Assembly (NCBI GenBank): GCA_905234685.1
Contig: CAJOIR010000008.1
Span: 1-60,498, forward strand
Length of the DNA stretch: 60,498 nucleotides
Reading direction: 5' to 3'
Source of the DNA: Paludibacteraceae bacterium
GTDB taxonomy: Bacteria > Bacteroidota > Bacteroidia > Bacteroidales > Paludibacteraceae
In this document: one piece after another, positions 3,958-52,855 of the stretch
How the letters are laid out: every line of letters starts with the position of its first letter
Numbering within the stretch: position 1 is the first letter of the stretch
Program-made: the position numbers and the translations under genes
Notes under the pieces: model-generated
Databases searched by the model: none
Told to the model about the DNA's origin: nothing
What the model saw: the letters and a program-made list of their open reading frames with translations, nothing else

Positions 3958-4004
3958 CGTCCTTTTTACGTCTTTTTTTCGTCCTTTTTACGTGTTTTTT
4001 ACGT
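3958..4004 (+). repeat. 11-bp tandem array, unit CGTCCTTTTTA, 4 copies
   Basis: Four consecutive 11-nt units begin at 3958, 3969, 3980 and 3991: CGTCCTTTTTA, CGTCTTTTTTT, CGTCCTTTTTA and CGTGTTTTTTA, followed by CGTAAAT. A second copy of the same family, with the same CGTAAAT ending, lies at 26905-26962. The T-tracts are phased once per 11 bp, which would favour DNA curvature. Confidence 0.95.
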
Positions 4005-4123
4005 AAATCATATATCGGCTTTATGGATAAGAGGGGTTAAGGGCATAGAGGAATGACGGGAGAGTGATGAGGAGTTAAGTGAGGTTGTGATGAGGTCAAA
4101 TGATGAAGAAATAGCAGAAATAA

Positions 4124-4155
4124 TTTGCAGGAATGAAAAAGTTGCGCTACCTTTG
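4124..4155 (+). promoter_or_regulatory. Promoter of tRNA-Met
   Basis: TTTG at 4124-4127, a 20-bp spacer, then TACCTTTG at 4148-4155. This is a full match to the Bacteroidota -33/-7 promoter and lies 21 bp before the tRNA. Confidence 0.75.
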
Positions 4156-4176
4156 CAGCCGCAAAAGCGAAATTCT

Positions 4177-4251
4177 GGTCCCGTAGCTCAGTTGGTCAGT
4201 AGCACCTGACTCATAATCAGGGGGTCCTTGGTTCAAGCCCAAGCGGGACCA
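4177..4251 (+). tRNA. tRNA-Met (CAT), elongator-type
   Basis: The acceptor stem GGTCCCG/CGGGACC with discriminator A, the T-arm CTTGG-TTCAAGC-CCAAG and the anticodon arm CCTGA-CTCATAA-TCAGG give anticodon CAT. The first pair is G-C, so it is not the initiator. A tRNA-Ile with lysidine-modified CAT cannot be excluded from sequence. The D-arm is one nucleotide longer than the common elongator pattern, leaving a 3-bp D-stem (GCT/AGC). Confidence 0.93.
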
Positions 4252-4267
4252 CAATATCAATTATAAA

Positions 4268-4300
4268 GGGAGAAAATCACGGTTTTCTCCCTAAATTTTT
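4268..4300 (+). terminator. Rho-independent terminator after tRNA-Met
   Basis: A perfect 9-bp stem GGGAGAAAA/TTTTCTCCC with a 6-nt loop is followed by TAAATTTTT. It separates the tRNA from the small gene at 4319. Confidence 0.85.
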
Positions 4301-4318
4301 ATAATAACTAATAATACC

Positions 4319-4711
4319 ATGAATACTGCTGACTACATATTACTTCTGGATGACAAAGAAGAAGAGGACATGCGCGGTGAATACGGCAAAGACCTGATGA
4401 TGATGTCGCACGAATACCTGATGCTGCCGATGGAGGATATCGGAGAGAAACTGACAGACATGATACAATGCCGCAACCAGAAGAAAACGAGTATGTATCA
4501 GGTGAGACTTCTTAGTATAAAAGGCGAGAGCGTGAACCTCCAGTTTGACTCGTATATTCTCAGGGACGAGACATTCAGCCTGAATGCAGACGAGCCTTAC
4601 AGGAGAGGTGTGAGCGGCTGCAGAGACAAATATCACTACCTTACATTCTCGCTTGTAAGCAAAGAAAAATTCGAGATACCCAAGAACAGTCTCGAGTATC
4701 TCGATATTTAG
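4319..4711 (+). CDS. Conserved-looking hypothetical protein
   Basis: 130 aa, not recognised. It starts MNTADYILLLDDKEEED, has an acidic, Met-rich N-terminal half (GKDLMMMSHEYLMLPMEDIG) and a C-terminal half with alternating hydrophobic residues suggesting beta strands (YQVRLLSIKGESVNLQF, HYLTFSLVSKEKFEI). No signal peptide or membrane segment is visible, so it is probably a small cytosolic protein. It begins 19 bp after the tRNA-Met terminator and is convergent with clpX. Its codon usage resembles its neighbours. Confidence 0.7.
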   Translation: MNTADYILLLDDKEEEDMRGEYGKDLMMMSHEYLMLPMEDIGEKLTDMIQCRNQKKTSMYQVRLLSIKGESVNLQFDSYILRDETFSLNADEPYRRGVSGCRDKYHYLTFSLVSKEKFEIPKNSLEYLDI

Positions 4712-4745
4712 TATGATGCAGTTGTAAAGAAAGGCTTTCCGCTTT

Positions 4746-6026
4746 CTATAATCCTGCCTGCAGTCGAAGCATGTCGGCAGCCTCTATTTGGCGGCGTGCA
4801 AAATCAAGTGTGACAGTGTAGTTATCCACATGGTTATGTGGCAGGTCATACATAACCGGCATCATGACAGTCTCGGCAAGTGAGCGCAATCCGCGTGCTC
4901 CGAGTTTGTACTCGACAGCCTTATCTACAATATAGTCAAGCACCTGAGGCTCGAAATCTAGAACTACGCCATCCATTTGCAGCAGTTTCTTGTACTGCTT
5001 GATGATGGCGTTCTTAGGCTCAGTGAGAATATTTCGCAATGCCTCTCGTGAGAGCGGCTCAAGATATGTGAGTACGGGTAACCGTCCTACAATCTCCGGT
5101 ATGAGTCCGAAAGCCTTAAGGTCCTGTGGTGCTATGTATTTGAGAATATTATCCTTGCCCACGCGCTGACGTGTGTCGGCCTTCTCGAAGCCAATAACCT
5201 GAGTATTGAGTCGTGCAGCAATTCTTCGTTCGATACCGTCGAAAGCGCCTCCGCAGATAAAGAGTATGTTCTGAGTATCGACATGTATGAACTCCTGCTC
5301 AGGGTGCTTTCTTCCTCCCTCAGGTGGCACGTTGACGACAGAGCCCTCAAGGAGTTTCAGTAATGCCTGCTGCACTCCTTCTCCACTAACATCACGTGTG
5401 ATGCTTGGGTTGTCGGACTTGCGTGCAATTTTGTCGATTTCATCGATGAAAACGATGCCTCTCTCAGCCTTCTTGACATCATAGTTGCACTCCTGAAGCA
5501 GCCTTGAAAGGAGAGACTCGACATCTTCGCCGACATAACCAGCTTGAGTGAGCACGGTAGCATCAACGATGGTAAACGGCACCTTGAGCATCTTAGCGAT
5601 GGTCTTGGCAAGTAGAGTCTTTCCTGTGCCAGTGGAGCCGACCAGAATGATGTTAGACTTCTCAATCTCCACATCATCGTCGGTCTTAGGCTGAAGTAGG
5701 CGCTTGTAGTGGTTATAGACGGCAACGGAGAGAAAACGTTTAGCCTCGTCCTGACCTATGACATACTGGTCGAGGAAAGCCTTGATTTCTGCCGGCGCAG
5801 GGAGACTGTCCAATGAGATGGCCTCATCTCTGATTCCTGTTTTCTTTTCCTTCCGTTTTGCCACGAGGGTATTGATGAACTTCTCGTAGTCCACACCCAT
5901 TTCGCTGTATATTGACACCGCCTGAGCAGCGCAAGAAGGGCATATATAGACACCTGCATCTCCAAGCAATCCTTCAGCCTCAGTTCCACAGAAGGAGCAA
6001 CGGTTTATGTTGCTTTTCTTAGCCAT
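4746..6026 (-). CDS. clpX: ATP-dependent Clp protease ATP-binding subunit ClpX
   Basis: 426 aa from the ATG at 6024-6026 ([14 protein letters not shown]). An upstream in-frame ATG would add eight atypical residues. The N-terminal zinc-binding domain has CSFC and CPSC. The AAA+ module has Walker A GSTGTGKT, Walker B FIDEIDK and the arginine-finger region following [15 protein letters not shown]. ClpX unfolds tagged substrates and feeds them to ClpP. Its start overlaps the clpP stop by 8 nt in a different frame, so the pair is translationally coupled. The usual trigger-factor gene is not upstream of clpP here. Confidence 0.98.
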
Positions 6027-6693
6027 TTTTTTTAGAGAAGACGCGGTCAATCATTCCGTATTCAAGTGCCTCCTGAGCTGTCATCCAGTAGTCACGGTCG
6101 GCATCAGCAATAATCTTATCCATAGACTGTCCTGAATGATTGGATATAATCTGATATAGTTCCTCTTTGAGTTTGAGAATCTCGCGAGCGGTGATCTCTA
6201 TATCCGAAGCCTGACCTTGAATACCTCCCATAGGCTGATGAATCATTACGCGGCTGTGAGGCAGTGCAGCACGCATACCCTTCTCGCCAGCGACAAGGAG
6301 CACAGCACCCATAGAGGCCGCCATGCCAGTACAGATAGTGGCAACCTTGGCGGATATAAACTGCATGGTGTCGTAGATGCCGAGACCAGCATATACGCTA
6401 CCACCAGGGGTATTGAGGTAAAGGGAAATGTCGCGACTGCTGTCAACAGAGTCAAGATAGAGCAACTGTGCTTGAATGACATTGGCACTATAGTCAGTGA
6501 CCTCAGTGCCCATGAAGATGATTCGATCCATCATAAGACGTGAGAAGACATCCATTTGAGTGACGTGCAGTTCTCTCTCTTCGAGAATAGAAGGAGAGAT
6601 ATAACTTGCTCTGGGGGCAGAAACGTTCATCAAATTTTCAACGTGCATGGTATTCATACCCATGCTCTTTACATACTTGAGGAAATCATTCAT
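6019..6693 (-). CDS. clpP: ATP-dependent Clp protease proteolytic subunit ClpP
   Basis: 224 aa. It carries the full serine protease triad: Ser127 in GMAASMGA, His152 in VMIHQPMGG and Asp201 in DADRDYWM. The [17 protein letters not shown] block is intact. The N-terminal propeptide-like stretch of about 30 residues is longer than in E. coli, as is usual in Bacteroidota. It forms the tetradecameric chamber that pairs with ClpX (next gene) and probably ClpC (8908-11388). The promoter box is at 6728-6735. Confidence 0.98.
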
Positions 6694-6727
6694 AAGGCTG
6701 TAAGTTAATGTGGTTTGTTATTGGTCG

Positions 6728-6735
6728 CAAAGATA
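6728..6735 (-). promoter_or_regulatory. -7 box (TATCTTTG) of clpP-clpX
   Basis: The minus-strand TATCTTTG lies 34 bp upstream of the clpP start. A CTTG (one mismatch to TTTG) lies 20 bp further upstream at 6756-6759. Confidence 0.6.
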
Positions 6736-6760
6736 GGGCTTTTAGATTAAATACACAAGT

Positions 6761-6782
6761 GTTTTATATTTGTTTTATATGT
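6761..6782 (+). repeat. 11-bp tandem repeat, unit GTTTTATATTT, 2 copies
   Basis: GTTTTATATTT is followed directly by GTTTTATATGT (10 of 11 identical). It sits in the centre of the clpP/porin divergent promoter region and overlaps the -33 TTTG of the porin promoter. With only two AT-rich copies it is weak evidence alone, but the period matches the other arrays. Confidence 0.6.
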
Positions 6783-6803
6783 CAACAATATTTAGTACCT
6801 TTG
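6769..6803 (+). promoter_or_regulatory. Promoter of the porin gene, nearly leaderless
   Basis: TTTG at 6769-6772, then TACCTTTG at 6796-6803 with a 23-bp spacer. Only 9 nt separate the box from the ATG at 6813, so the 5' UTR should be a few nucleotides. This also excludes the longer in-frame start upstream. Confidence 0.65.
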
Positions 6804-6812
6804 CACCGCATA

Positions 6813-8819
6813 ATGTCACACTACACGAAACATATAATAACTATGTTGGTGCTGCTGACGACAGCGGTGTACCAGATTTCAGCCAAGGAGACGACCAAGC
6901 CTTCATTCAGGAGTTGGCATCTGCATGAGGGTCTTCGTGTGGTTGACTCCGTAGGTTTTGACACATCGTATATTGACTATCCGATGAAAGAGATGCCTCA
7001 CATATATTCAGTTGCCAACAGTTATAACGGCAACCTTGTGTCACCTATAGAATCAAAACTATTTTTCGACCGTCGAAATAAGACGGGCTTCCTATTTGCT
7101 CATGCCTATGAACCCTACATACTGACAGGAGAGGATGTGCGCTTTTATAAGACAAACATAGCCTTCAGTTCGATAGCCTACAAGAAAGGATTTACGACAT
7201 ACCGCGAAGACAACGACATTGACTTCATGTTCACAGGTAACGTGACACGCAAGACAAATTTGGGTATCACTCTAAACTACCTGAACGGTGTGGGTCACTA
7301 TGATTCCCAAGCAGGCAAACGTTTTGCCGGCAGTCTTTTCGGGTCGTACAACGGCAACCACTACTCGTGTATGGGTGCTGTTACATTCAACACGATGAGC
7401 ACTTTCGAGAACGGCGGTCTGAGTGATGACAGTTCTCTAAGCGGCATACTGAAAGCAGAAGACCTCAGTGTCAAGCTTAACGCGATGTCAGGCTTCAAAC
7501 ACATAGCCGGCTTCTGGAATCACTACTACAGTATATGTGTGGAGCGTGAACGCAAGGAGAAGATAAAGCCACGCCGCGGCAGTAACGAAGAACCGAGAGA
7601 CACGGTCATCATAGAGTATATACCTGTGACCACTTTCCGTCATGTGCTTGATATCAACCAGTCAACGCGCAGATACGTAGAGAAGACGTCACGTCAGAAC
7701 TTCTATGAGGACACTTATTTTAACATGAGCAAGACCAACGACACCGCCAATGTGCTAAACATACGTAATACGCTGATGGTGACCTTTGAAGAGGAATTCA
7801 ACAAGTGGCTGAAGTTTGGTGCAGACGTATATGCTGTGAATGAATGTCAGCGATATGGCTTTCATATACCCGACCAGAAGGCTCTGTTCATTGACTCAGT
7901 GCTAATTGGCGACCTATCGAAATACACATCGCAGTACTTGCTTCCCGGTGACACGGTGATGGGCAAACGCTGGGTGAACAACACGTGGATAGGCGGCTCG
8001 CTATACAAGAACAGAGGCAAGTGGGTTCACTACGGCTTTAACGGCGACGTATGTCTAGCAGGCTACAAGATAGGACAGTTTCAGGTGAACGGTCATGTGG
8101 ACGGCGATTTCCCAATAGGCAAGGACACTCTGAGTATGAGTGCCAAGGTGTCATTCGGCAATGAGACTCCCGATTACTTTCTGCAGCACTACCGCTCAAA
8201 TCACTTTACATGGAACAACAACTTCGTGAAGCCCTACAAACTGCATGTAAACGGAGTCGTGAGTTATCCGACCAAGTATGTGCAACCTCGTGTACAGGTT
8301 GACTTTGCAAACATAACCAACCATATTTATTTCGGCACTGACGGCAAGCCACACCAAATGACCGGCAACATACAGGTGATAGCAGTGAATGCACAGGTGA
8401 ACATACGAGCTCCGTATTTCGGAATGGACAATAACGTAGTATGGCAGATGTCATCGTCGGAGCATGTGCCTTTGCCTATGATAACGCTATACAGCAACAT
8501 ATACTACTACGGCACATGGTTCAAAGCCCTTGATGTGCAGATGGGTGTTGACCTCAGATATCACACTCTGTATTACGCGCCTGTGCTAAATCCTGCCATA
8601 GGTCAGTTCTGCGAGCAGAAAGACAAAATGATTGGAAACTACCCAGTGTTGAATGTTTATGCCAATTTCTACGTGAAGTTACTAAGATTGAAGTTCTTTG
8701 CACACTTCACGCACTTTAACCAGTATTTCATGCCTGAGAAAACCTATTTCTCCATGCCGGGATACCCACTTAATCCGCCGGTATTCAGAGCAGGACTGGC
8801 ATGGCATTTCTACAAGTAG
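6813..8819 (+). CDS. Putative outer-membrane porin (Porin_10-like)
   Basis: 668 aa from the ATG at 6813 (MSHYTKHIITMLVLLTTAVY), giving a normal signal peptide. A more upstream start would put the promoter inside the gene. The mature protein is rich in alternating polar/aromatic strands (FLFAHAYEPYI, GITLNYLNGVGHY, VHYGFNGDVCLAGYKIGQF) and ends with an aromatic strand, FRAGLAWHFYK, typical of outer-membrane barrels. It resembles the Bacteroidota putative porin family (Porin_10). The substrate is unknown. It is transcribed divergently from clpPX. Confidence 0.8.
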   Translation: MSHYTKHIITMLVLLTTAVYQISAKETTKPSFRSWHLHEGLRVVDSVGFDTSYIDYPMKEMPHIYSVANSYNGNLVSPIESKLFFDRRNKTGFLFAHAYEPYILTGEDVRFYKTNIAFSSIAYKKGFTTYREDNDIDFMFTGNVTRKTNLGITLNYLNGVGHYDSQAGKRFAGSLFGSYNGNHYSCMGAVTFNTMSTFENGGLSDDSSLSGILKAEDLSVKLNAMSGFKHIAGFWNHYYSICVERERKEKIKPRRGSNEEPRDTVIIEYIPVTTFRHVLDINQSTRRYVEKTSRQNFYEDTYFNMSKTNDTANVLNIRNTLMVTFEEEFNKWLKFGADVYAVNECQRYGFHIPDQKALFIDSVLIGDLSKYTSQYLLPGDTVMGKRWVNNTWIGGSLYKNRGKWVHYGFNGDVCLAGYKIGQFQVNGHVDGDFPIGKDTLSMSAKVSFGNETPDYFLQHYRSNHFTWNNNFVKPYKLHVNGVVSYPTKYVQPRVQVDFANITNHIYFGTDGKPHQMTGNIQVIAVNAQVNIRAPYFGMDNNVVWQMSSSEHVPLPMITLYSNIYYYGTWFKALDVQMGVDLRYHTLYYAPVLNPAIGQFCEQKDKMIGNYPVLNVYANFYVKLLRLKFFAHFTHFNQYFMPEKTYFSMPGYPLNPPVFRAGLAWHFYK

Positions 8820-8907
8820 AATTAAAGTTAAAGATTAATGTTTAAGAATCAAAGTTTAATGTTTTAGTGGCAAAACCCTATTTAAACGACAAAATACCAG
8901 TGACAAT

Positions 8908-18126: not shown

Positions 18127-18159
18127 ATATAGTTATGATATAGTTATAATATTGTTACA
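18127..18159 (+). repeat. 11-bp tandem array, unit ATATAGTTATG, 3 copies
   Basis: ATATAGTTATG, ATATAGTTATA and ATATTGTTACA follow one base after the CACCTACTAAT array, so the 11-bp phase is almost continuous although the unit sequence changes completely. Confidence 0.85.
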
Positions 18160-18248
18160 AAATATTGATTGTGGAGGGGTTAAGTGTGGGTGGAAAGTGT
18201 GTTTTGTGCTCAAGTTTCTTACTGAGTACGATTTTTTCTTAAAATAAT

Positions 18249-18517: not shown

Positions 18518-19822
18518 ATGAGAAAAATCTTTACACTTTTAACCGCAGCGCTTCTCACACTCGCTGCAAACGCTTCTATAGTCACTTGGGACTATGATTT
18601 CCTATATGATGATCTATGGATTTACGCCGAAAATGGTGTTGTTGAAGACGAAGAAAATAATACTTTAGACGGTATTACTGCAACAGCGTCCTCAGTCATA
18701 GGAAATATTGTTTTTTGGGATAATATTGTATTTGAGAACGGCGGGGGCACAATAACCTTTACTTCTTCAATAGGCGATATCTCAAAAATAGAGATACTTG
18801 GAAGTAAAACTTATGAACAATATAATTCAGAAACTTATAATTATGATGTGTTTGATAATTTTACAGGAACTATAAGTGGTGACGAATGGACAATTACTTT
18901 AACAGACAAGAATACCAAAAAGGTGGCAACGTGGAGTGGTACACCTTCAACATCGGTGAATCTAACTTCTGCTGACCTTGAGATTAATGACATTATCTCT
19001 ATTGTCTTTACCATTGCTGACGAGCACACCATAACCTTTGCTAAAGAAGGAGGAGTAGATGGAGATGTGCCTGCTACTATCAAGGTTGTTCCCGGCGAGA
19101 GTTTCACTGTTCCTGTCAACCGTACTCTCTACAAAGAAGGCTACACACTCACAGGCTGGAATGACGGCACAACAACCCGTCTTCCCGGGGCTGTTATAAC
19201 ACCTGACGGTGACATGACACTGACAGCAATGTTCACACAGAATACAAAAGACCTTAGCACAACTTCATCCGCTGTTACCGTTACTTGGGAATTCGGTATA
19301 GGCAATGGCGCTCCGAGTGTTAGCATTGAGGGTAACACAGGTATCCTCGTTGCTCAGGCTTCTGTAGGCGGAGAGACACAGGATATAAAATTGGATATTG
19401 ATGCTACTTCATCGGGAGCAAAGTTCAAAACTATTGGAAATACTGAGTGTGCAAATGTGTTTGAAAATACAATATTCTCTCTCCCCAACAAAGAAGGTGT
19501 TACAGTAGAGGTGAAGACATCAAGCTCTCCCGGAGCAAGTACGTTTGGAGGTAGTACATATTCCTCTATTGAAAACCATAGCACCTATTATGTTGCTACT
19601 TATTCGACAGATGATGTATCTGACCCTGTGGAATTTCAGGTGTTGGGTGGCTCATTGTACTTTTACCTTAAGGCATGCTATCCTTCATCGTCATCATCAC
19701 CCACAACGGGAATAGAGAATACTGTTGCTGATGAGCAACCTGTGAAGCGTCTCATTGACGGCAACATACTTATCTTCCGCGGTGGCAAAGTTTATAGTTT
19801 GATGGGGCAGGAGGTGAAGTAA
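18518..19822 (+). CDS. Secreted protein with InlB-type repeat and sorting-like C-terminus
   Basis: 434 aa. The signal peptide (MRKIFTLLTAALLTLAANAS) is followed by a beta-rich domain rich in Asn/Asp/Thr. A Listeria-Bacteroides (InlB B-type) repeat is at about residues 172-240, with YKEGYTLTGWNDGTT and MTLTAMF. After a second beta domain comes a Ser-rich linker and a C-terminal tail TGIENTVADEQPVKRL with LIFRGGKVYSLMGQEVK, resembling the short C-terminal sorting/anchor tails of Prevotella exported proteins. It is probably surface-exposed. The ligand is unknown. It is preceded by the long structured leader. Confidence 0.75.
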   Translation: MRKIFTLLTAALLTLAANASIVTWDYDFLYDDLWIYAENGVVEDEENNTLDGITATASSVIGNIVFWDNIVFENGGGTITFTSSIGDISKIEILGSKTYEQYNSETYNYDVFDNFTGTISGDEWTITLTDKNTKKVATWSGTPSTSVNLTSADLEINDIISIVFTIADEHTITFAKEGGVDGDVPATIKVVPGESFTVPVNRTLYKEGYTLTGWNDGTTTRLPGAVITPDGDMTLTAMFTQNTKDLSTTSSAVTVTWEFGIGNGAPSVSIEGNTGILVAQASVGGETQDIKLDIDATSSGAKFKTIGNTECANVFENTIFSLPNKEGVTVEVKTSSSPGASTFGGSTYSSIENHSTYYVATYSTDDVSDPVEFQVLGGSLYFYLKACYPSSSSSPTTGIENTVADEQPVKRLIDGNILIFRGGKVYSLMGQEVK

Positions 19823-19871: not shown

Positions 19872-19970
19872 TTCGTAAGGGCGACTCAATGTAGTCGCCC
19901 TTACTATATTTAACCTTGGATTTCACGAATAAGGGCGACCACACTGCGCTGACGCTGTCGCCCCTACGAA
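19872..19970. repeat. Nested inverted repeats built on GGGCGAC (REP-like)
   Basis: A perfect 11-bp stem TAAGGGCGACT/AGTCGCCCTTA (19876-19886 with 19893-19903) is followed by a second hairpin GGGCGAC/GTCGCCC (19933-19939 with 19957-19963). The outer arms TTCGTAAGGGCGAC (19872) and GTCGCCCCTACGAA (19957-19970) are complementary at 13 of 14 positions, so the whole 99 bp can fold as a cruciform. It lies between convergent genes and could serve as a bidirectional terminator. Confidence 0.85.
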
Positions 19971-19999: not shown

Positions 20000-20032
20000 G
20001 TGTATATTAAGCATATATTGAGCATATATTGG
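20000..20032 (+). repeat. 11-bp tandem array, unit GCATATATTGA, 3 copies
   Basis: GTGTATATTAA, GCATATATTGA and GCATATATTGG occur head to tail at 20000, 20011 and 20022. It is the only such array in this window located between convergent genes. Confidence 0.85.
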
Positions 20033-26865: not shown

Positions 26866-26898
26866 ATGTTCCGTTCATGTTCCGTTGATCCTATAGTC
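26866..26898 (+). repeat. 11-bp tandem repeat, unit ATGTTCCGTTC, 2 copies plus a third 11-mer
   Basis: ATGTTCCGTTC (26866-26876) and ATGTTCCGTTG (26877-26887) are followed by the 11-mer ATCCTATAGTC (26888-26898). That third unit shares CCTATAGT with the arrays at 41374 and, in reverse complement, 52834. Confidence 0.8.
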
Positions 26899-26904
26899 TT
26901 TTCT

Positions 26905-26962
26905 CATCCTTTTTACGTCCTTTTTTCGTCCTTTTTTCGTGTTTTTTTCGTCTTTTTTCCGT
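26905..26962 (+). repeat. 11-bp tandem array, unit CGTCCTTTTTT, 5 copies
   Basis: Five 11-nt units start at 26905, 26916, 26927, 26938 and 26949, then CGTAAAT. It is the same family and the same ending as the array at 3958-4004, 23 kb away. Confidence 0.95.
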
Positions 26963-26963
26963 A

Positions 26964-26985
26964 AATGACAGGTGAATGACAGGTA
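26964..26985 (+). repeat. 11-bp tandem repeat, unit AATGACAGGTG, 2 copies
   Basis: AATGACAGGTG and AATGACAGGTA lie head to tail immediately after the T-rich array. Confidence 0.8.
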
Positions 26986-41373: not shown

Positions 41374-41406
41374 CTATAGTGGTCCTATAGTGGTTGTATA
41401 GTGGGC
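41374..41406 (+). repeat. 11-bp tandem array, unit CTATAGTGGTC, 3 copies
   Basis: CTATAGTGGTC, CTATAGTGGTT and GTATAGTGGGC start at 41374, 41385 and 41396. The reverse complement of the 52834 array (CCTATAGTGAT) is closely related. Confidence 0.9.
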
Positions 41407-41567
41407 AATAGTAATACAATTATTAAAAATATTGAGGTGTATGATATGAAATAAAGAAAAAAGTTATTTACTATTATTAAGAAATCTATATACGAATTTT
41501 AAGATTTAGGAATGTCGTAGGTAGTTATGGTGTTTGATTGTTAAAAATATTATATAATTTTGTCCCG

Positions 41568-41640
41568 TGATTTTTTCATAGTATTAGATTTAAGGTTAAT
41601 TTTTGTGAGTAAGGGTTGTCGGGAGACAACTCTTATTTTT
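41568..41640 (+). ncRNA. Candidate small RNA between promoter and terminator
   Basis: A promoter-like TTTG (41533-41536) and TAATTTTG (41555-41562) are followed, about 50 nt later, by a stem AGGGTTGTC/GACAACTCT (41612-41620 with 41625-41633) with loop GGGA and TATTTTT. Transcription would yield an RNA of about 70 nt. The spacer is 18 bp, slightly short. It could instead be an attenuated leader of the downstream gene. Confidence 0.35.
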
Positions 41641-41731
41641 GTATAGAAGTTATTCCGTAGTTGTGTTAATGAAGTGTCGTGGATAAGTTGAAATTATACA
41701 GGAATCAGTTGTGAAAGTGAAAAAAAATGTG

Positions 41732-47074: not shown

Positions 47075-47740
47075 TTATTGTATAGTTGTTCTTATTTTAT
47101 CTTTTACTTTGTTCACCTTGTTTTTTGCCGAACCACTATTATATGCTTCATTAAACTCGCTTACGCTGGGCACTTGTTTTCCTGTAATTTGTGCCACCCA
47201 ATTACGAAGATTACGAAGATCTAAGCGCTCATTGTTGCTGACTTCAAGGTAATCAAGAGCTTTAAGTGCTCGGAGAAAATGTGCCACCTCTGCCATATTG
47301 ATTTTATTTGGATTTTTAGAATGAGACGGCAAATCTCTTAACATTTGTATAACTATATTTTTTTGAATCTCGGTCAATCCTTTTAAAGGAGAAACTACAT
47401 TACTAAGATCGGGTTGATGGTTATTCTCAAGTTCTGAGGCTCTTTGCAAAACATAATTTACCTTCTCCTCAAAACTCCTTTCTTCATCACTTTTAACAAA
47501 AGGTGATAATATCAATCTCACAACAACGCCTAACAAAAATACAACAAGCATAATAGCACCTGAATATTTGAACACTTGTTGTAATATGTCTTGCTGAAAT
47601 ATCTCTAATCCATAATTTGATAGTAGATGAAAAATAAACCATATAATAATCCCTGCAAATAGTAATGAGATAGATATTTCAACTATTTGCTTGAATATAG
47701 CATCTATTCGAATCAACTTTTTTTCGACCTCTTTATTCAT
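47075..47740 (-). CDS. Two-TM protein with cytosolic helical domain, unknown
   Basis: 221 aa. Two transmembrane helices at about residues 22-42 (ISLLFAGIIIWFIFHLL) and 58-80 (SGAIMLVVFLLGVVVRLIL) precede a soluble helical domain. That domain contains LTEIQKNIVIQMLRDLP, MAEVAHFLRALKALDYLEVS and LRNWVAQITGKQVPSVSEF, the last part resembling a small helical protein-protein or DNA-interaction domain. I do not recognise a family. It has its own full promoter (47807-47838) and terminator, and its AT-rich codons suggest transfer. Confidence 0.65.
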   Translation of the reverse strand: MNKEVEKKLIRIDAIFKQIVEISISLLFAGIIIWFIFHLLSNYGLEIFQQDILQQVFKYSGAIMLVVFLLGVVVRLILSPFVKSDEERSFEEKVNYVLQRASELENNHQPDLSNVVSPLKGLTEIQKNIVIQMLRDLPSHSKNPNKINMAEVAHFLRALKALDYLEVSNNERLDLRNLRNWVAQITGKQVPSVSEFNEAYNSGSAKNKVNKVKDKIRTTIQ

Positions 47741-47806
47741 ACTCTGACGAATTTTAACTAATGTACATTATGAATCCTAAACAACAATTTGTACGCTATT
47801 TGTGTG

Positions 47807-47838
47807 CAAAAATATATGTTTCCTGATGATTATGCAAA
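47807..47838 (-). promoter_or_regulatory. Promoter of the 47075 gene
   Basis: On the minus strand, TTTG (47835-47838), a 20-bp spacer, then TATTTTTG (47807-47814), 66 bp before the start at 47740. Confidence 0.7.
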
Positions 47839-48038
47839 TTCTAAATATTTTGGAATTGCAATAGGCGTACGAAACTCATTGTTTGTCATTTTTTCTTCAA
47901 AAAGAAAACAAATGATTTTTACTGTTATACTATTTATAACGCTATCATCATCTAATTACAATCAAATTAACAAATAACCACCAAAAACAAAATTATTAAA
48001 CAATAAATTAGAAATCTTTTACAATATTTTTACGGAGG

Positions 48039-48071
48039 ATATACGATAGATACACGATAGATACACGATAG
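48039..48071 (+). repeat. 11-bp tandem array, unit ATACACGATAG, 3 copies
   Basis: ATATACGATAG, ATACACGATAG and ATACACGATAG start at 48039, 48050 and 48061. Confidence 0.9.
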
Positions 48072-48289
48072 ATAAATTATATTTTTAGTATATGCAACTA
48101 TAATCCATAACTTTCCTTTCTTTCAAATGTGTTTGAAAAAGTAAAGATGCTTCTCCAATAACACTAACTCTCTATTATTACCACCATTTTCAACTCCTTT
48201 GTTACATTTGGCATAGTATATATTCACATTAATGAGGGATTTTTTTAAAAAAATAAGCAAAGAGTATGCACAATTAAAATAATTTGCTT

Positions 48290-48297
48290 ATCTTTGC
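48290..48297 (+). promoter_or_regulatory. -7 box (TATCTTTG) of tRNA-Ser (GGA) and possibly the exb operon
   Basis: TATCTTTG lies 47 bp upstream of tRNA-Ser. No terminator was seen between the tRNA and exbB (60 bp), so read-through into exbB is possible. Confidence 0.55.
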
Positions 48298-48344
48298 GGT
48301 CGAATATGTGCTAATGCGCCTTTTCTCGGGCAAAAGGTGTATAG

Positions 48345-48432
48345 GGAGAGATGCTCGAGTGGTTGAAGAGGCACGCCTGGAAAGCGTGTAAACCTCAAAA
48401 GGGTTTCCGGGGTTCGAATCCCCGTCTCTCCG
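48345..48432 (+). tRNA. tRNA-Ser (GGA)
   Basis: Acceptor GGAGAGA/TCTCTCC with discriminator G, anticodon arm CACGC-CTGGAAA-GCGTG (anticodon GGA), a long variable arm and T-loop TTCGAAT. It is 88 nt, a class II tRNA. It sits at the edge of the AT-rich accessory block. Confidence 0.96.
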
Positions 48433-48491
48433 CAAAGGTCAAAATATAATAAATAAACAAACATAATATTATCATTAAAAAACACAAGAAC

Positions 48492-49307
48492 ATGAAAAAA
48501 GTATTTGCTACCCTTACGGTTATTGCAATGTTCGCATTTTGCGGCAATGCAGTAGTAATGGCTCAAGACGCTGCTCCTGCAGCAGATGAAACTGTACAAG
48601 TTGATGAACAAGCTCCTGCTGAGGAGGTGGTTGAGGCTGCTCCTGAAGTTGAGGAAAGTGGTCTGGTTGCTCTGCACAAGACTTTGAAAACTAAGTTTAT
48701 TGAAGGTGGTGCCGGCTTTATGGCTGCTACTTTGCTCTGCTTGGTATTCGGTCTCGCTCTCTGCATTGAGCGTATTATCTATTTGAGTCTAAGTAAGACC
48801 AACACCAAGGCTCTCCTGAAAAATGTTGAAGATGCTTTGGCAGAAGGCGGTGTTGAAAAAGCTATGGAGGTATGCCGTGAGACTCGCGGACCGGTAGCAA
48901 GTATCTTCTATCAAGGTCTGAGCCGCTATAACGAGGGTGTTGACGTTGTGGAGAAGACTGTTGCTTCCTATGGTGGAGTGCAGCTTGGTCTCCTAGAGAA
49001 GAACCTGAGTTGGATCACCCTGTTTATTGCTATCGCTCCTTCGTTGGGATTCTTGGGAACCATCATCGGTATGATCGCTGCGTTCGACAAGATACAGCAA
49101 GTAGGTGATATATCGGCTACTGTTGTTGCCGGTGGTATCAAGGTTGCATTGTTGACCACATTGCTCGGTCTTATCATTGCTATCGTTCTTCAGATTTTCT
49201 ATAACTACATCCTCTCACTCGTTGAAGGTCTTGTAAATGAAATGGAAGACGCTTCCATCTCGCTGCTTGACATCGTTGTTGAATACGACAAGAAGCAGAA
49301 GAAATAA
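48492..49307 (+). CDS. exbB: MotA/TolQ/ExbB proton channel family protein
   Basis: 271 aa. Unlike E. coli ExbB it has an N-terminal signal-like segment (MKKVFATLTVIAMFAFCGNA) and an acidic Ala/Pro/Glu-rich stretch (residues 25-56) before the first channel helix (FMAATLLCLVFGLALCIERI). The TolQ/ExbB core follows, with NLSWITLFIAIAPSLGFLGT, GTIIGMIAAFDKIQ and VALLTTLLGLIIAIVLQIF. It forms the proton channel energising TonB. It is first in the four-gene run exbB, unknown, exbD, exbD. Confidence 0.95.
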   Translation: MKKVFATLTVIAMFAFCGNAVVMAQDAAPAADETVQVDEQAPAEEVVEAAPEVEESGLVALHKTLKTKFIEGGAGFMAATLLCLVFGLALCIERIIYLSLSKTNTKALLKNVEDALAEGGVEKAMEVCRETRGPVASIFYQGLSRYNEGVDVVEKTVASYGGVQLGLLEKNLSWITLFIAIAPSLGFLGTIIGMIAAFDKIQQVGDISATVVAGGIKVALLTTLLGLIIAIVLQIFYNYILSLVEGLVNEMEDASISLLDIVVEYDKKQKK

Positions 49308-49358
49308 TTGCGGTTGCTTGGGCAAACGTCATTAAACATTTAACTAAAAGTTACTGCA

Positions 49359-49838
49359 ATGAAAAATCTGAATTTAATCCCCAAAATCACTCTCTGGGTG
49401 CTCCTCGCACTCGGAATAATTGCCTCTGTGATGTTTTACGCAGGAGGTGATGAGGCTCAGGGGTTGGAGGTTGCAGGCGACATACTTAACATACCTGTAT
49501 TCACCAACCTGTTCCTCAATTGGAATTACATACTTCTTACTCTCGCCATTATCGTTACGATTTGCGCTGTGGTGGCAAGTTTCACACTTAAGTTCAAGGT
49601 CAACAGAAAGAAAGCTATCAGTTCGCTCATCATCTTAGTTGCTTTCGTCTTGGTGGCTGTGCTTTGCTGGTTCCTTGGTAGCCCTGCTGAAATGCATATC
49701 GTTGGTTATGAAGGCACTGACAACGTTGGAGCTATGGCTCAAATGTCGGATGCTATTATGTATCTTACTTACATCCTGTTGGCAGGTCTGATTTGCACAA
49801 TCTGCTGGGGTGCTTTCTATACACACATTAAAAAGTAA
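49359..49838 (+). CDS. Small membrane protein between exbB and exbD
   Basis: 159 aa. Four hydrophobic segments are visible (ITLWVLLALGIIASVMFYA, YILLTLAIIVTICAVVASFTL, AISSLIILVAFVLVAVLCWFL, and AIMYLTYILLAGLICTICWG). It occupies a conserved place in Bacteroidota TonB-motor operons, 51 bp after exbB and 5 bp before exbD. Its function is unknown. The position suggests an accessory subunit of the ExbB/ExbD motor, which is inference from context only. Confidence 0.85.
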   Translation: MKNLNLIPKITLWVLLALGIIASVMFYAGGDEAQGLEVAGDILNIPVFTNLFLNWNYILLTLAIIVTICAVVASFTLKFKVNRKKAISSLIILVAFVLVAVLCWFLGSPAEMHIVGYEGTDNVGAMAQMSDAIMYLTYILLAGLICTICWGAFYTHIKK

Positions 49839-49843
49839 ACGCT

Positions 49844-50437
49844 ATGGCAGGAGGAAAGAAGAAAGTTCCGGCATTGAATGCCAGCTCTATGGCTGACATC
49901 TCTTTCCTGTTGCTTATATTCTTCTTAGTAACAACTTCTATGGATGTAAGTCAGGGTCTCGCACGTCGTCTCCCTGCTCCTATACCACCTGACCAGAAGA
50001 TTGAAGACACTGATATCAACAAGCGTAACCTGTTTGTCGTTAAGATTAACTCGATGAACCAGTTGCTTGTTCAAGGTCAGGAGATGAATGTAAGACAACT
50101 GAAAGAGAAAGCCAAGGAGTTTATTGTTAACCCTAACGATGATCCAAATCTACCTAAAGTCTTTACTGAGGACTTCGGTGAGCCTTTCGGTATGGTTGCT
50201 TATACACCGGATCATGTTATCTCGGTTCAGAATGACGTGGACACACAGTATCAGGCATATCTTGATGTGCAGAACGAACTTGTTGCTGCGTACAATGAAC
50301 TCCGTGAAGAGTGTGCTCAGAAGTATTGTCATAAGAGTTTCAACGAGCTTGACGAGGAGACTCAGAAGGTAATCCAGAAGATATACCCGCAGAAGATTTC
50401 CGAGGCAGAGCCTAAAAACTATGGAGGGAACAAGTAA
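49844..50437 (+). CDS. exbD: ExbD/TolR family biopolymer transport protein (first copy)
   Basis: 197 aa. The N-terminal tail and transmembrane helix show the ExbD signature NASSMADISFLLLIFFLVTT, with the conserved Asp of the proton path at the start of the helix. A periplasmic domain follows, including a long insertion (residues about 80-190) not present in E. coli ExbD. It couples proton flow through ExbB to TonB. Its stop overlaps the start of the second exbD by 1 nt (TAATG). Confidence 0.93.
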   Translation: MAGGKKKVPALNASSMADISFLLLIFFLVTTSMDVSQGLARRLPAPIPPDQKIEDTDINKRNLFVVKINSMNQLLVQGQEMNVRQLKEKAKEFIVNPNDDPNLPKVFTEDFGEPFGMVAYTPDHVISVQNDVDTQYQAYLDVQNELVAAYNELREECAQKYCHKSFNELDEETQKVIQKIYPQKISEAEPKNYGGNK

Positions 50438-50907
50438 TGGCAAAGATTCGCAGAAATGAAAAGAAAGAGATGCCGGCGCTTAACACGTCGTCGCTCCCCG
50501 ATATCATCTTCATGCTCTTGTTCTTCTTCATGACTGTTACTTCCATGAAGGAGGTGAGTTACAAGGTCCGCTTCACGGTGCCTCAGGCTACTGAGCTCAC
50601 CAAGATGGAGAAGAAGTCGCTTGTGCGCTATATTTATGTAGGTACTCCTACTGAGGAGTTCCGTAAACAATACGGTGCTGAGACTCGTATCCAGCTTGAT
50701 GACGCCTTTGCTGAGGTTAACGAGATAGAGAACTATATCGTCAATGAGCGTTCTGCCATGTCTGAGGCTGACCAGGGGCAGATGACCGTCAGCATTAAGG
50801 CTGATGCCGATACACGTATGGGTGTCATTGCCGACATCAAGCAGGCTCTACGTCGTGCTTACGCTTTGAAAATCAGTTATGCTGCCACTCAGCGTACTTC
50901 CTATTGA
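50437..50907 (+). CDS. exbD: ExbD/TolR family biopolymer transport protein (second copy)
   Basis: 156 aa, a second ExbD paralogue with the signature NTSSLPDIIFMLLFFFMTVT and a periplasmic domain ending VSIKADADTRMGVIADIKQA, the usual ExbD C-terminal fold. The two copies may form a heterodimer in one motor or serve different TonB proteins. tonB is not in this window. A hairpin follows at 50929-50960. Confidence 0.93.
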   Translation: MAKIRRNEKKEMPALNTSSLPDIIFMLLFFFMTVTSMKEVSYKVRFTVPQATELTKMEKKSLVRYIYVGTPTEEFRKQYGAETRIQLDDAFAEVNEIENYIVNERSAMSEADQGQMTVSIKADADTRMGVIADIKQALRRAYALKISYAATQRTSY

Positions 50908-50928
50908 TGCGTAGCACTCACAATCTTT

Positions 50929-50960
50929 AGAGCAGGGGTCATAACTATGGCTCCTGCTCT
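50929..50960 (+). terminator. Hairpin after the exb operon
   Basis: Stem AGAGCAGG/CCTGCTCT (50929-50936 with 50953-50960), extendable by a G-T and a G-C pair. It has no clear T-tract (followed by ATCTGG), so termination is uncertain. Confidence 0.4.
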
Positions 50961-51003
50961 ATCTGGTATTAACAAATATAAAATCAAATAAGTATTGTAT
51001 ATT

Positions 51004-51735
51004 ATGGAAGACTTGGGTTATAGCTTTGGATCTGCCGTAAGAGAAGGCACATTCATGTGGACGGATTATATCATATATGCGCTTTTCGGAATAATCACTA
51101 TTATCAGTTGGATTGTGCAACAGGCGCTGCAGAGCAAGTTTAAGAAATACAGTCAGGTCGAGTTGCCATTCTCAGGGAAAGAGCTGGCTGAGAAGATGCT
51201 TCGTGACAACGGGATTGACGATGTGCAGGTTGTCTCTACTGAAGGACAGCTCACTGATCACTATAATCCTTCCAACCGCACGGTCAACCTCTCGCAGGGA
51301 GTCTTTGACAAGAGGACTGTTGCTGCTGCGGCTGTGGCTGCACATGAGTGCGGACATGCTGTACAGCATAGTAAATCCTATGCTTTTCTCAGTCTTAGGT
51401 CAGCCTTGGTGCCGGCAGTGAATATATCTTCCAAGTGGATGCCATGGATATTGTTGCTGGGCATTGTCTTCGTGCAATATACCGCCATCCCGCTTGGAAT
51501 AGGCATTGCCTTGTTCGCTATAACCACTCTCTTCTCTTTCGTGACATTACCTGTAGAAATAGATGCAAGCAGGCGAGCTGTCGCTTGGCTGGAAGAGGCT
51601 CAAATCACAACTGCGGAAACCACTCCTATGGCTAAGGACGCATTGCGTGCGGCTGCTTACACCTATGTAATAGCGGCTCTCTCTTCGCTCGCAACACTAT
51701 TGTATTACGTTGCCATCTTCATGAAAAGACGTTGA
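51004..51735 (+). CDS. Membrane zinc metallopeptidase (Zn_peptidase_2-like)
   Basis: 243 aa from the ATG at 51004. The in-frame TTG 9 bases upstream is less likely. One N-terminal transmembrane helix is followed by the zinc motif HECGH at residues 114-118 (AAHECGHAVQHSKSYAF) and further hydrophobic helices (WILLLGIVFVQYTAIPLGIG, ALSSLATLLYYVAIF). EIDASRRAVAWL is a family block. It is a predicted membrane protease of the neutral zinc metallopeptidase family. The substrate is unknown. Confidence 0.92.
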   Translation: MEDLGYSFGSAVREGTFMWTDYIIYALFGIITIISWIVQQALQSKFKKYSQVELPFSGKELAEKMLRDNGIDDVQVVSTEGQLTDHYNPSNRTVNLSQGVFDKRTVAAAAVAAHECGHAVQHSKSYAFLSLRSALVPAVNISSKWMPWILLLGIVFVQYTAIPLGIGIALFAITTLFSFVTLPVEIDASRRAVAWLEEAQITTAETTPMAKDALRAAAYTYVIAALSSLATLLYYVAIFMKRR

Positions 51736-51778
51736 CGGTAGAGGGCTGAAGTTGGATAGCAGGATTCTGACTTGGGAG

Positions 51779-52810
51779 TCAGAGGTTGAAGAGGAAATCG
51801 AGTGCATCACCGATTTCCTCTTTTTTTGCAGTCTGGTTGATACGGCAGTTGCCCACCTGACGCAGCAGAGAGAAGTTGATGACGTCTGCCGACATGTTCT
51901 TCTTGTCATGACGCATGAACTCTATCAGTTTCTCATAGTCCTTGCAGGCGCACGCAGGCTTTGGATAATGTTCAAGCATGAAGTGAACAACTTGAATCAT
52001 GGTCTGTTTGGGAAACGAGAGTTTGACCATAGAGAGGTATAGTTCTGCCACTATGCCGTACATCACTGCTGTGCCGTGAAGTAGTTTCTGACCCTTGCTC
52101 AGCGAGTATTCCTCAAGCGCATGACCCACTGTATGGCCGAAGTTGAGCGACTTCCTCAAACCTGTCTCCTCGGGGTCTAGGTCCACTATATACTGCTTGA
52201 TGTCTATGCTCCGCTGTATCAGTTCTGCAAGGCTCTCGTAGTCAGGGTTGTCTATGTTAAAAGCAAGAACATGTATTAGTTCCAGTGGCGATGCTATCAG
52301 GGCATGTTTGAGCATCTCCGCATAGCCTGACAGAAGTTGATCGTGAGGCAGAGTGCGGAGAAAAGGAGGATAGATCACTGTGGATTTCGGCTGATAAAAA
52401 ACGCCTATCTCATTTTTCAAACCCTGGTAGTCAAATCCTGTCTTGCCGCCGCATGACGCATCTACCATGGCAAGGAGGGTCGTCGGTATGTTGACAAAGG
52501 GGATCCCGCGCTTGAATGTAGCAGCTGCAAAACCGCCCATGTCGCACAGCACTCCGCCGCCAAGTATAAGCAGAAGTGAGGAGCGTGTTGCATTACCTTT
52601 AATAAGGAAATCCCAGATGCGCTCAACCGTCTCGAGGGTCTTGTATTGCTCACCATCAGGCAGACACAGGATATGCTCAGCTGATATATCTAATGTCTTC
52701 CTGATTTCGCTCAGGCAGTACTGCTGCGAATTGGTGTCAGTCAGAAGATACAAGTCGCGGCTTTCGCTGAGTCCCACTGCGTTGCGAAGGTCTAAGTCAA
52801 GGTCAAACAT
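51779..52810 (-). CDS. aroB: 3-dehydroquinate synthase
   Basis: 343 aa. Second enzyme of the shikimate pathway, NAD- and metal-dependent. Key blocks: GGGVLCDMGGFAAATFKRGI (NAD site), IPTTLLAMVDASCGGKTGFD, GYAEMLKHALI with the metal-ligand Glu, and LNFGHTVGHALEEY with catalytic histidines. It is convergent with the zinc peptidase gene. A minus promoter box TATCTTTG is at 52896-52903, so the 11-bp repeat at 52834 falls in its 5' UTR. Its 3' coding end contains a terminator-like hairpin read from the other strand. Confidence 0.96.
   Translation of the reverse strand: MFDLDLDLRNAVGLSESRDLYLLTDTNSQQYCLSEIRKTLDISAEHILCLPDGEQYKTLETVERIWDFLIKGNATRSSLLLILGGGVLCDMGGFAAATFKRGIPFVNIPTTLLAMVDASCGGKTGFDYQGLKNEIGVFYQPKSTVIYPPFLRTLPHDQLLSGYAEMLKHALIASPLELIHVLAFNIDNPDYESLAELIQRSIDIKQYIVDLDPEETGLRKSLNFGHTVGHALEEYSLSKGQKLLHGTAVMYGIVAELYLSMVKLSFPKQTMIQVVHFMLEHYPKPACACKDYEKLIEFMRHDKKNMSADVINFSLLRQVGNCRINQTAKKEEIGDALDFLFNL
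51791..51827 (+). terminator. Terminator for the zinc peptidase transcript, inside the aroB 3' end
   Basis: A perfect 10-bp stem GAGGAAATCG/CGATTTCCTC (51791-51800 with 51811-51820) and a 10-nt loop are followed by seven T on the plus strand, 55 bp after the zinc peptidase stop. The same bases encode the last residues of aroB on the minus strand. Confidence 0.85.
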
Positions 52811-52833
52811 ATCTACTCTTTGTATATATGGAA

Positions 52834-52855
52834 ATCACTATAGGATCACTATAGG
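52834..52855 (+). repeat. 11-bp tandem repeat, unit ATCACTATAGG, 2 copies
   Basis: Two identical 11-mers start at 52834 and 52845. Read on the other strand they match the 41374 array (CCTATAGTG core). Confidence 0.9.

What the first reader, a model, noticed from the sequence alone, without database searches (positions are those of the whole stretch)
3958..52855. A family of intergenic tandem arrays with different units but a constant 11-bp period
Eleven arrays were read directly: 3958 (x4), 6761 (x2), 18060 (x6), 18127 (x3), 20000 (x3), 26866 (x2-3), 26905 (x5), 26964 (x2), 41374 (x3), 48039 (x3) and 52834 (x2). The units are mostly unrelated (CACCTACTAAT, ATACACGATAG, CGTCCTTTTTT, GCATATATTGA and others), yet every period is exactly 11 nt. 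None was found inside a gene. Ten of the eleven lie in divergent intergenic regions, and seven of the eight divergent junctions in the window have at least one. Only the 67-bp tRNA-Arg junction lacks an array. A constant period near one helical turn, independent of sequence, suggests an amplification mechanism or a binding/architectural constraint acting on helical phase, perhaps separating divergent promoters or marking DNA curvature. I know of no described system of this kind in Bacteroidota.
Basis: seen in the sequence. Interest (0 to 1): 0.8.

Follow-up and report, generated by a model that had tools for sequence, protein, structure and literature searches.

The report
Dispersed 11-bp intergenic repeat arrays
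A rumen bacterium carries short arrays of repeated 11-letter DNA units scattered between its genes; the units belong to about ten recurring families that keep the 11-letter spacing, and two of these families favour particular gene-boundary positions, but what spreads them and what they do are unknown.

Summary
The arrays are real: all 11 are found, and period 11 dominates the window and 1.23 Mb of its genome (45 intergenic arrays against 0.05 in shuffled intergenic DNA). Units are not unrelated: 42 of 49 arrays fall into ten families recurring at unlinked loci. There is no general divergent bias: outside the window divergent spacers have the lowest density (not significantly).

What replaces them is more structured. 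In five of seven families tested, similarity extends just one or two 11-bp blocks beyond the array; no terminal inverted repeats are seen. Neighbouring units lie 11 apart (189 pairs; none at 10 or 12 inside the arrays) despite 205 substitutions. Two families track gene architecture: a phased A-tract family lies in divergent spacers (8 of 8; held-out 4 of 5), another just behind stop codons and enriched in convergent spacers (7 of 12; held-out 6 of 14), in either orientation. Relatives carry other units, copy number differs in steps of 11, and some arrays sit inside protein loops.

Best reading: a lineage of dispersed minisatellite elements in at least two genera, under unit-length constraint, probably multi-site DNA-protein platforms at gene boundaries. 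Architecture is shown; function is inferred.

The parts
3954..4004 (-). Family H array (GGACGAAAAAA / ACGTAAAAAGG, phased A-tracts), about 4.6 units, divergent spacer before tRNA-Met
6760..6780 (.). TGTTTTATATT x1.9, below the threshold of the family comparison; in the divergent spacer or in the N-terminus of ORF 6708-8819, depending on the start codon
18058..18124 (+). Family I array (AATCACCTACT) x6.1, also found once more in the genome part read (C1:150315)
18127..18163 (.). ATATAGTTATG x3.4, no second member in the part read, directly behind the family I array
20003..20031 (+). Family J array (GCATATATTGA) x2.6, CONVERGENT spacer; an intrinsic terminator-like hairpin lies separately at 19875-19904
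26866..26889 (-). Family B array (GAACGGAACAT, CAACGGAACAT) x2.2, in 11-bp register with the next parts
26888..26898 (-). One family A unit (GACTATAGGAT) joining the B and H arrays in exact 11-bp register
26898..26962 (-). Family H array x5.9, divergent spacer
26961..26984 (.). AATGACAGGTG x2.2, end of the composite array, below the threshold of the family comparison
41374..41404 (-). Family A array (CACTATAGGAC/T) x2.8, upstream of tRNA-Ser (minus strand)
48038..48074 (.). GATACACGATA x3.4, no second member in the part read, divergent spacer before tRNA-Ser
52834..52856 (+). Family A array (CACTATAGGAT) x2.1, divergent spacer

Best explanation
The arrays are members of a lineage of dispersed minisatellite elements found in this genus and in at least one sister genus. 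Shown: an element is a head-to-tail array of one or a few 11-bp unit types, in five of seven families tested with one or two similar 11-bp end blocks, and nothing further is conserved within 99 bp. About ten unit families recur at unlinked loci in this genome. Copy number differs in steps of 11 between two near relatives. Related species carry other units, sometimes inside protein loops. The 11-bp register is kept far better than the sequence. Two families have preferred gene-boundary positions (H between divergent genes, E just behind stop codons). Inferred: whole arrays are copied to new places by an unknown process, and unit length is held by selection because the array works as a row of binding places one helical turn apart for a DNA-binding protein or proteins acting at gene boundaries. 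Orientation independence in family E and the lack of general RNA structure point to double-stranded DNA as the working form.
For: Ten families cover 42 of 49 arrays; identical units in 53 array pairs against 0.4 (mean of 5 letter shuffles). Conservation around arrays drops towards background (about 0.27) after one or two 11-bp blocks, for example G 0.64/0.68 then 0.38/0.47, H 0.59/0.47 then 0.36/0.29. Different unit types abut in exact register, e.g. an A-like unit before B at 4 of 11 B arrays. 189 pairs at spacing 11, 0 at 10, 1 at 12, 1 at 13, with 205 substitutions; the cases at 8, 12 and 13 are 7/8-bp repeats or stray matches, not family arrays. In the same spacers lag 22 has 38 hits but 21 and 23 only 3 each, while the 7/8-bp repeats mix lengths (14: 9, 15: 19, 16: 9). 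Family by context with one family per junction: H 8 of 8 divergent (p 4.5e-5), E 7 of 12 convergent (p 2e-4), 1 of 20,000 label permutations as uneven (8 of 8 and 8 of 13 before double counts were removed); held out, H 4 of 5 (p 0.026) and E 6 of 14 (p 0.005). E lies in the stop-codon half in 11 of 11 co-directional spacers, nearest stop 3-124 bp away (median 18 of 25), orientation 13 sense to 12 antisense. Steps of 13x11 and 4x11 between L077 and L090. Family G in 35 of 101 genomes of the genus (this one included) with very unequal counts; another unit, TAACCTACTAA, at 12 places in a genome of a sister genus.
Against: No binding protein, transposase or other mover was looked for or found, and no bench data exist. 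Only two of nine families show a context preference. The H/E tests were framed after seeing the fitted data; only the held-out part (5 and 14 arrays) is clean. Family A shows almost no conserved end block (0.33/0.32) and B a weak one (0.39/0.36). The tenth family, ATTTACGATTT, occurs mostly singly (77 single matches between genes, 2 arrays), unlike the others. The congener G014 has few 11-bp arrays (5 in 310 kb) and more 7-bp ones (18). The reversed-unit control for spacing was not clean (55 pairs at 11). Gene calls come from a home-made caller.
Confidence: 0.45

Rival explanations
1. Neutral or selfish dispersed minisatellite: arrays copy themselves around and expand by slippage; the constant period is common descent only, and gene-boundary positions reflect where insertions are tolerated.
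For: Arrays also sit in tolerant coding places of relatives (19 of 71 in called genes; exonuclease loop). Both units of an array differ together between L069 and L079 with 97-99% identical flanks. Very unequal family counts between congeners. Seven of nine families show no context preference.
Against: No unit-length change seen inside the family arrays among strongly varied units. H in divergent and E behind stop codons, replicated in held-out arrays; simple tolerance would not send different families to different junction types.
Confidence: 0.33
2. Operators of OmpR/PhoB-type or similar regulators that bind head-to-tail 11-bp half-sites; each family is one regulon.
For: Direct repeats of 11 bp centre to centre fit the published PhoP rule of 7-bp motifs with 4-bp spacers (PMC4832192, start of abstract in the listing). 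B is sense-oriented in 7 of 7 co-directional spacers.
Against: Arrays of up to nine units, many in convergent or 3'-end positions; single sites between genes are few for most families; units differ between close relatives. No regulator was searched for.
Confidence: 0.08
3. Helical-phase or curvature elements: any repeat near one helical turn adds up bends, so sequence is free and period fixed.
For: Family H is a phased A-tract and is found between divergent genes. Of 58 distinct units 20-21 fall in the top fifth of predicted bend among permutations of their letters (11.6 expected; KS p 0.019 at 10.5 bp/turn, 0.059 at 11). An 11-bp periodicity of bacterial DNA is in print (PMC4132750, PMC516772, starts of abstracts in the listing).
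Against: Mean percentile only 0.56-0.57, with A 0.09, B 0.05, G 0.10, E 0.19 (wedge values recalled). Curvature would also admit 10- and 21-bp spacing, which is nearly absent.
Confidence: 0.07
4. RNA-level elements (Rho loading sites, hairpins or G-quadruplexes).
For: Several units are C-rich and G-poor on one strand. Family G has one GGG in most units and 4-6 units in 8 of 8 arrays, as in the four-unit preference reported for GGGNATC repeats (PMC4692102 abstract). 13% of 98 folded strands have z below -2.
Against: E is orientation-independent (13:12). Fold z-scores average -0.27. The other unit consensus sequences lack GGG on either strand.
Confidence: 0.05
5. Templated writing of repeats by a telomerase-like reverse transcriptase, followed by insertion.
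For: DRT10 makes short tandem-repeat cDNA (9 nt in one system), with unit sequences differing between systems (PMC12632851, abstract and passages).
Against: In DRT10 unit length varies between systems too, whereas here it is constant; nothing in the passages seen speaks of genomic insertion; this genome has at least ten unit types; no reverse transcriptase was searched for.
Confidence: 0.02

Closest known systems
BrickBuilt minisatellite/MITE of Porphyromonas gingivalis (PMC4596501; abstract, passages and part 1 of section 7 read)
   Same: Porphyromonas is of the same order (recalled); spacer-free tandem repeat inside a dispersed intergenic element with leader and tail; 19 copies in one strain; variable unit number; narrow host group.
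   Different: Unit of 23 nt, one family, leader and tail up to about 300 nt with terminal inverted repeats like those of IS5-family elements, always intergenic. Here: 11 bp, ten families, ends of one or two units, no inverted ends seen, sometimes coding in relatives, two families sorted by gene context.
GGGNATC heptad arrays of Xanthomonas and Nostoc (PMC4692102; abstract read)
   Same: Short tandem arrays spread over the genome, over-represented between genes, near stop codons, variable copy number.
   Different: 7-nt unit, one G-rich consensus, G-quadruplex reading, under-represented between divergent ORFs. Here only family G has GGG and family H is found in divergent spacers.
REP/BIME/REPIN repeats (PMC3116915, PMC1525189: start of abstracts seen in the listing; placement behind genes and hairpin form are recalled)
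   Same: Numerous short dispersed extragenic elements; family E shares placement behind stop codons and between convergent genes.
   Different: REPs are palindromic hairpins; no general hairpin here, and the body is a direct-repeat array.
Bacterial VNTR/minisatellite loci in general (recalled)
   Same: Copy number differs by whole units between relatives.
   Different: VNTRs differ in period from locus to locus; here one period is shared by ten families and units recur between loci.
parC of plasmid R1 (ParR sites, 11-bp direct repeats; recalled, no call)
   Same: Head-to-tail 11-bp repeats as a protein platform.
   Different: One plasmid locus with one unit sequence; here 49 chromosomal arrays in 1.23 Mb, 42 of them in ten families.

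Membership tests
BrickBuilt-type minisatellite MITE | spacer-free tandem direct repeats, dispersed in many copies | tested here: met
BrickBuilt-type minisatellite MITE | 23-nt unit | tested here: not met
   unit 11 bp
BrickBuilt-type minisatellite MITE | leader and tail with terminal inverted repeats | tested here: not met
   for seven families flank conservation ends after one or two 11-bp blocks within the 99 bp examined, and by eye the end consensus sequences are not inverse complements
BrickBuilt-type minisatellite MITE | strictly intergenic | tested here: not met
   2 of 47 own arrays and 19 of 71 arrays in relatives lie in called genes
REP/REPIN | imperfect palindrome forming a hairpin | tested here: not met
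   fold z mean -0.27 over 98 strands, 13% below -2
VNTR (minisatellite locus) | whole-unit copy number change between close relatives | tested here: met
   L077 against L090: 13x11 and 4x11 bp, two neighbouring arrays
Phased A-tract curved DNA | A-tracts in helical phase, bend above composition expectation, in all families | tested here: not met
   H 0.86 percentile; A, B, E and G at 0.05-0.19; 58 units average 0.56-0.57 with an excess in the top fifth
GGGNATC-type G4 repeats | four or more G-runs per array | tested here: not met
   of the ten unit consensus sequences only family G carries GGG
CRISPR | repeats separated by unique spacers | tested here: not met
   units abut without spacers
OmpR/PhoB-type operator arrays | bound by a response regulator | not testable with these tools
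   needs binding data; no regulator search was made
DRT10-type templated repeats | reverse transcriptase with an RNA template matching the unit | not tested
   no search of the genome for such a gene was made

The most novel reading that the evidence does not exclude
The arrays form a gene-boundary punctuation system: different 11-bp 'words' mark different kinds of junction (H between divergent genes, E behind stop codons, ordered composites such as A-B and C-D-B elsewhere). The array is read at the DNA level by proteins that polymerise in 11-bp steps, and the words are rewritten quickly between species while the register is kept.
Probability: 0.13. Interest if true: 0.85.

Novelty: new variant of a known kind. 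Interest (0 to 1): 0.5.

Why it matters
If unit length really is under selection while unit sequence is free to change, these bacteria offer a natural experiment on one-helical-turn spacing: ten families in one genome, dozens of loci, and many related genomes with other units. The context-specific families (H, E) would give a sequence handle on gene-boundary function in uncultured Bacteroidales. Even if neutral, it is a dispersed minisatellite lineage with an unknown means of spread, and the copy-number steps could serve as strain markers in rumen metagenomes.

Tried and rejected
Curvature as the general reason: tested with a wedge model whose parameters I recalled; H stands out and there is an excess of units in the top fifth, but A, B, E and G bend less than most permutations. 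RNA hairpins: z-scores near zero on average. Rho-type RNA signal: E has no orientation bias. Orthologous spacers of the sister species G013 were inspected by eye for empty sites in five places; at about 70% identity of the flanking genes the spacers do not align, so presence or absence could not be polarised. Replicate species G014: too few arrays (5 in 310 kb) for a context test. Reversed-unit control for unit spacing gave 55 pairs at 11, probably because some units nearly match their own reversal, so it is no clean control. A general divergent-junction bias was tested and not found outside the window. In one search families C and E, and A and B, counted some junctions twice; one search repeats the test with one family per junction (H 8 of 8, E 7 of 12; the apparent convergent excess of C, 4 of 9, goes to 1 of 6). 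Comparison of arrays between named relatives: 73 arrays with enough flank gave 23 array-locus comparisons; apart from those cited, most pairs had equal length or did not align across the array. Taxonomic range: 277 kb from 11 genomes of other families gave 0 lag-11 arrays. The family G pattern gave 0 of 58 genomes of other genera in the same family, but the backward control pattern hit one of them, G144; one search shows this to be a real dispersed 11-bp array family there, so 'one genus only' is wrong.

Not done: no search for binding proteins, reverse transcriptases or transposases; no strain-level comparison; target-site duplications were not examined; period spectra of sister genera were not measured.
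Full report
WHAT WAS CHECKED. The window is contig C8 of a 2.1-Mb, 63-contig genome. Its closest named relatives are Paludibacteraceae genomes assembled from rumen and gut samples. Tandem Repeats Finder reports all 11 arrays of the finding with period 11. Counting exact self-matches of 10 bases or more, lag 11 has 13 hits; every other lag from 4 to 40 has at most 1, except 22 (5) and 33 (2). Lag 11 gives 47 arrays: 26 in co-directional, 11 in divergent and 8 in convergent spacers, 2 in coding. In 96,951 bases of intergenic DNA lag 11 gives 45 arrays; 20 dinucleotide shuffles give 0.05 on average, at most 1. Other intergenic periods exist: 7 (11), 8 (16), 15 (19).

Units recur. Of 49 arrays (slightly lower threshold), 42 fall into ten families of two to eight members, linked by units at most one base apart; 53 pairs of arrays have identical units, against 0.4 pairs on average in five letter shuffles. 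The families as named here are G AATCACCCAAT, A CACTATAGGAT, F CACGGACGATA, B GAACGGAACAT, E CATCCTAAGCT, C CATCGTAACCT, H GGACGAAAAAA, J GCATATATTGA, I AATCACCTACT, and ATTTACGATTT. Window arrays belong to H (3954, 26898), A (41374, 52834), B (26866), I (18058) and J (20003); 18127 and 48038 have no second member in the part read, and 6760 and 26961 were below the threshold and not compared. The divergent excess is local. With tRNAs counted, the window has 6 of 7 arrays (at this threshold) in divergent spacers. Outside it, divergent spacers hold 6 arrays in 22.9 kb, convergent 7 in 10.7 kb and co-directional 27 in 59.7 kb; 42 arrays in all, two not assigned to a spacer. The low divergent count is not significant (p 0.11).

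ANATOMY. Aligning the flanks of all members of seven families, similarity above background extends one 11-bp block, at most two, to each side and then stops. For G the blocks next to the array score 0.64 and 0.68 and the next ones 0.38 and 0.47, against a background of about 0.27; F, C, H and one side of E behave alike, B is weak (0.39/0.36) and A is close to background (0.33/0.32). By eye the end blocks resemble one another across families (GAAATATAAG on G and, on the other strand, next to F and E). They are not inverse complements, so I see no terminal inverted repeats. Different unit types abut in exact register: an A-like unit directly precedes B in 4 of 11 B arrays, a C-D-B order occurs twice, and in the window H, A and B follow one another without a break. 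Single copies (up to one mismatch) between genes are few for most families (0 to 5 each), except ATTTACGATTT with 77.

CONSTANT UNIT LENGTH. For nine families, neighbouring unit matches lie 11 bp apart in 189 cases, 10 apart in none, 12 apart in one and 13 apart in one, while neighbouring units at 11 differ by 205 substitutions in all; spacing 8 occurs 11 times and 16 six times. The cases at 8, 12 and 13 are stray matches or other repeats such as CCTCTTAA octamers, not family arrays. In the same spacers lag 22 occurs 38 times and lags 21 and 23 three times each; the 7/8-bp repeats of the same genome mix their lengths (14: 9, 15: 19, 16: 9). This is the strongest sign that the length, and not only the sequence, is held. 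One control failed: reversed units also gave 55 pairs at 11, probably because some units, G above all, nearly match their own reversal.

CONTEXT. A first count gave H 8 of 8 in divergent spacers (p 4e-5) and E 8 of 13 in convergent ones (p 3e-5), with 0 of 20,000 permutations of 72 labels as uneven, but some junctions were counted under two families. With one family per junction (64 junctions) H is 8 of 8 divergent (expected share 0.29, p 4.5e-5), E 7 of 12 convergent (expected 0.13, p 2e-4), and 1 of 20,000 permutations is as uneven; the other seven families show nothing of note. Pattern searches then located H and E arrays in parts of the genome not used before; I wrote down the prediction, fetched the regions and read the contexts: H was divergent in 4 of 5 and E convergent in 6 of 14 (7 co-directional, 1 divergent); binomial p 0.026 and 0.005. 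In fitted and held-out arrays together, E lies in the stop-codon half of 11 of 11 co-directional spacers, 3 to 124 bp from the nearest stop codon (median 18, n 25), in sense orientation 13 times and antisense 12 times. That argues against an RNA sequence signal. B is sense-oriented in 7 of 7 co-directional spacers.

RELATIVES. Sister species G013 (203 kb) has 14 lag-11 arrays and at most 3 at any lag that is not a multiple of 11; G is shared and a different family, AACATAAGATG, is added. G014 has only 5 in 310 kb, with 7-bp repeats (18) more common. Twenty stretches (277 kb) from 11 genomes of other families have none. The family G pattern is in 35 of 101 genomes of the genus (this one included) with very unequal counts; the backward control pattern also hits some of them. 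It is in 0 of 58 genomes of other genera of the family, but the backward control hit one, G144. A closer look shows the unit TAACCTACTAA, close to family I, in tandem at 12 places of that genome and in none of a second genome of its genus. So dispersed 11-bp arrays are not confined to one genus. Among 80 named loci 46 have an array, and 19 of 71 arrays lie in called genes. One such site is a loop of an RNB-domain exonuclease (PF00773; I read it as RNase R): of 50 loci with the gene 36 loops could be parsed, and 11 of these carry 11-bp arrays with different units in different species and an open frame. Between L077 and L090 two neighbouring arrays differ by 13 and by 4 whole units. Between L069 and L079, with flanks 97-99% identical, both units of an array differ together. 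So arrays change in number and sequence while keeping the register.

MECHANISM. Bends do not explain the families in general: 58 distinct units average the 56th-57th percentile among permutations of their own letters; H is at 0.86, but A, B, E and G are at 0.05-0.19. There is an excess in the top fifth (20-21 of 58, 11.6 expected; KS p 0.02-0.06), so bending may matter for some (wedge parameters recalled). RNA folds are unremarkable on average (98 strands, mean z -0.27, 13% below -2). The best-supported account is a dispersed minisatellite lineage whose arrays are copied as wholes and whose unit length is selected, most simply because the array is a row of protein places one helical turn apart. 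Copying, binder and effect are all inferred. The strongest rival is a selfish or neutral lineage tolerated between genes and in protein loops; it explains turnover and coding insertions but not the lack of unit-length change or the sorting of H and E.

COMPARISON WITH WHAT IS KNOWN. The nearest published kind is BrickBuilt of P. gingivalis (23-nt repeats in a MITE; abstract, passages and part of one section read). These arrays share the idea of a dispersed intergenic minisatellite but fail its tests of unit, inverted ends and strict intergenic location. The GGGNATC heptads of Xanthomonas and Nostoc (abstract read) share dispersal and placement near stop codons. Searches for an 11-bp intergenic system in Bacteroidota found none; the library holds open-licence papers only, so this is weak evidence of absence. 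I file it as a new variant of a known kind.

Noticed in passing
window 41567-41643 (+): Rfam match to BTncRNA_FopS (RF04319), a family of paralogous Bacteroidetes sRNAs, score 58.2 against a cut-off of 56, in the same spacer as the 41374 array.
   Followed up: no
own genome, e.g. L012 14736-14830, L022 19347-19440; window 4020-4100: Degenerate purine-rich 7/8-bp repeats (gaggtgaaaaggctaaggggttaag type) follow several of the 11-bp arrays; they probably account for the lag 7, 8 and 15 signals and may be a second dispersed repeat class.
   Followed up: partly
G144 (sister genus g44), 12 places on 10 contigs: Dispersed tandem arrays of TAACCTACTAA, an 11-bp unit close to family I, in a genome of another genus of the same family; a second genome of that genus has none.
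   Followed up: partly
L067, L070, L072, L078, L098, L099 and others: A variable loop of an RNB-domain exonuclease is a repeated landing or growth site for 11-bp arrays with different units in different species, with an open frame in the parsed loops.
   Followed up: partly
L051 3509-3553; L108 4832-4869; L085 13346-13378: 11-bp arrays sit near what looks like the N-terminus, before a signal-peptide-like stretch, of large proteins (read by eye).
   Followed up: no
L077 15230-15372; L090 15351-15449: An 11-bp array with a nearly constant TATTAT part and a variable 5-bp middle, differing by 4 whole units between the two relatives.
   Followed up: no
G013: L172, L175, L179, L180, L185, L187: Family AACATAAGATG occurs six times; in at least four (L172, L175, L179, L187) AAGATG-type units come first and ACATC-type units after, as if whole arrays were copied (by eye).
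   Followed up: no
window 19875-19904 (+): Strong intrinsic terminator-like hairpin right behind gene 18518-19822, separate from the array at 20003.
   Followed up: no
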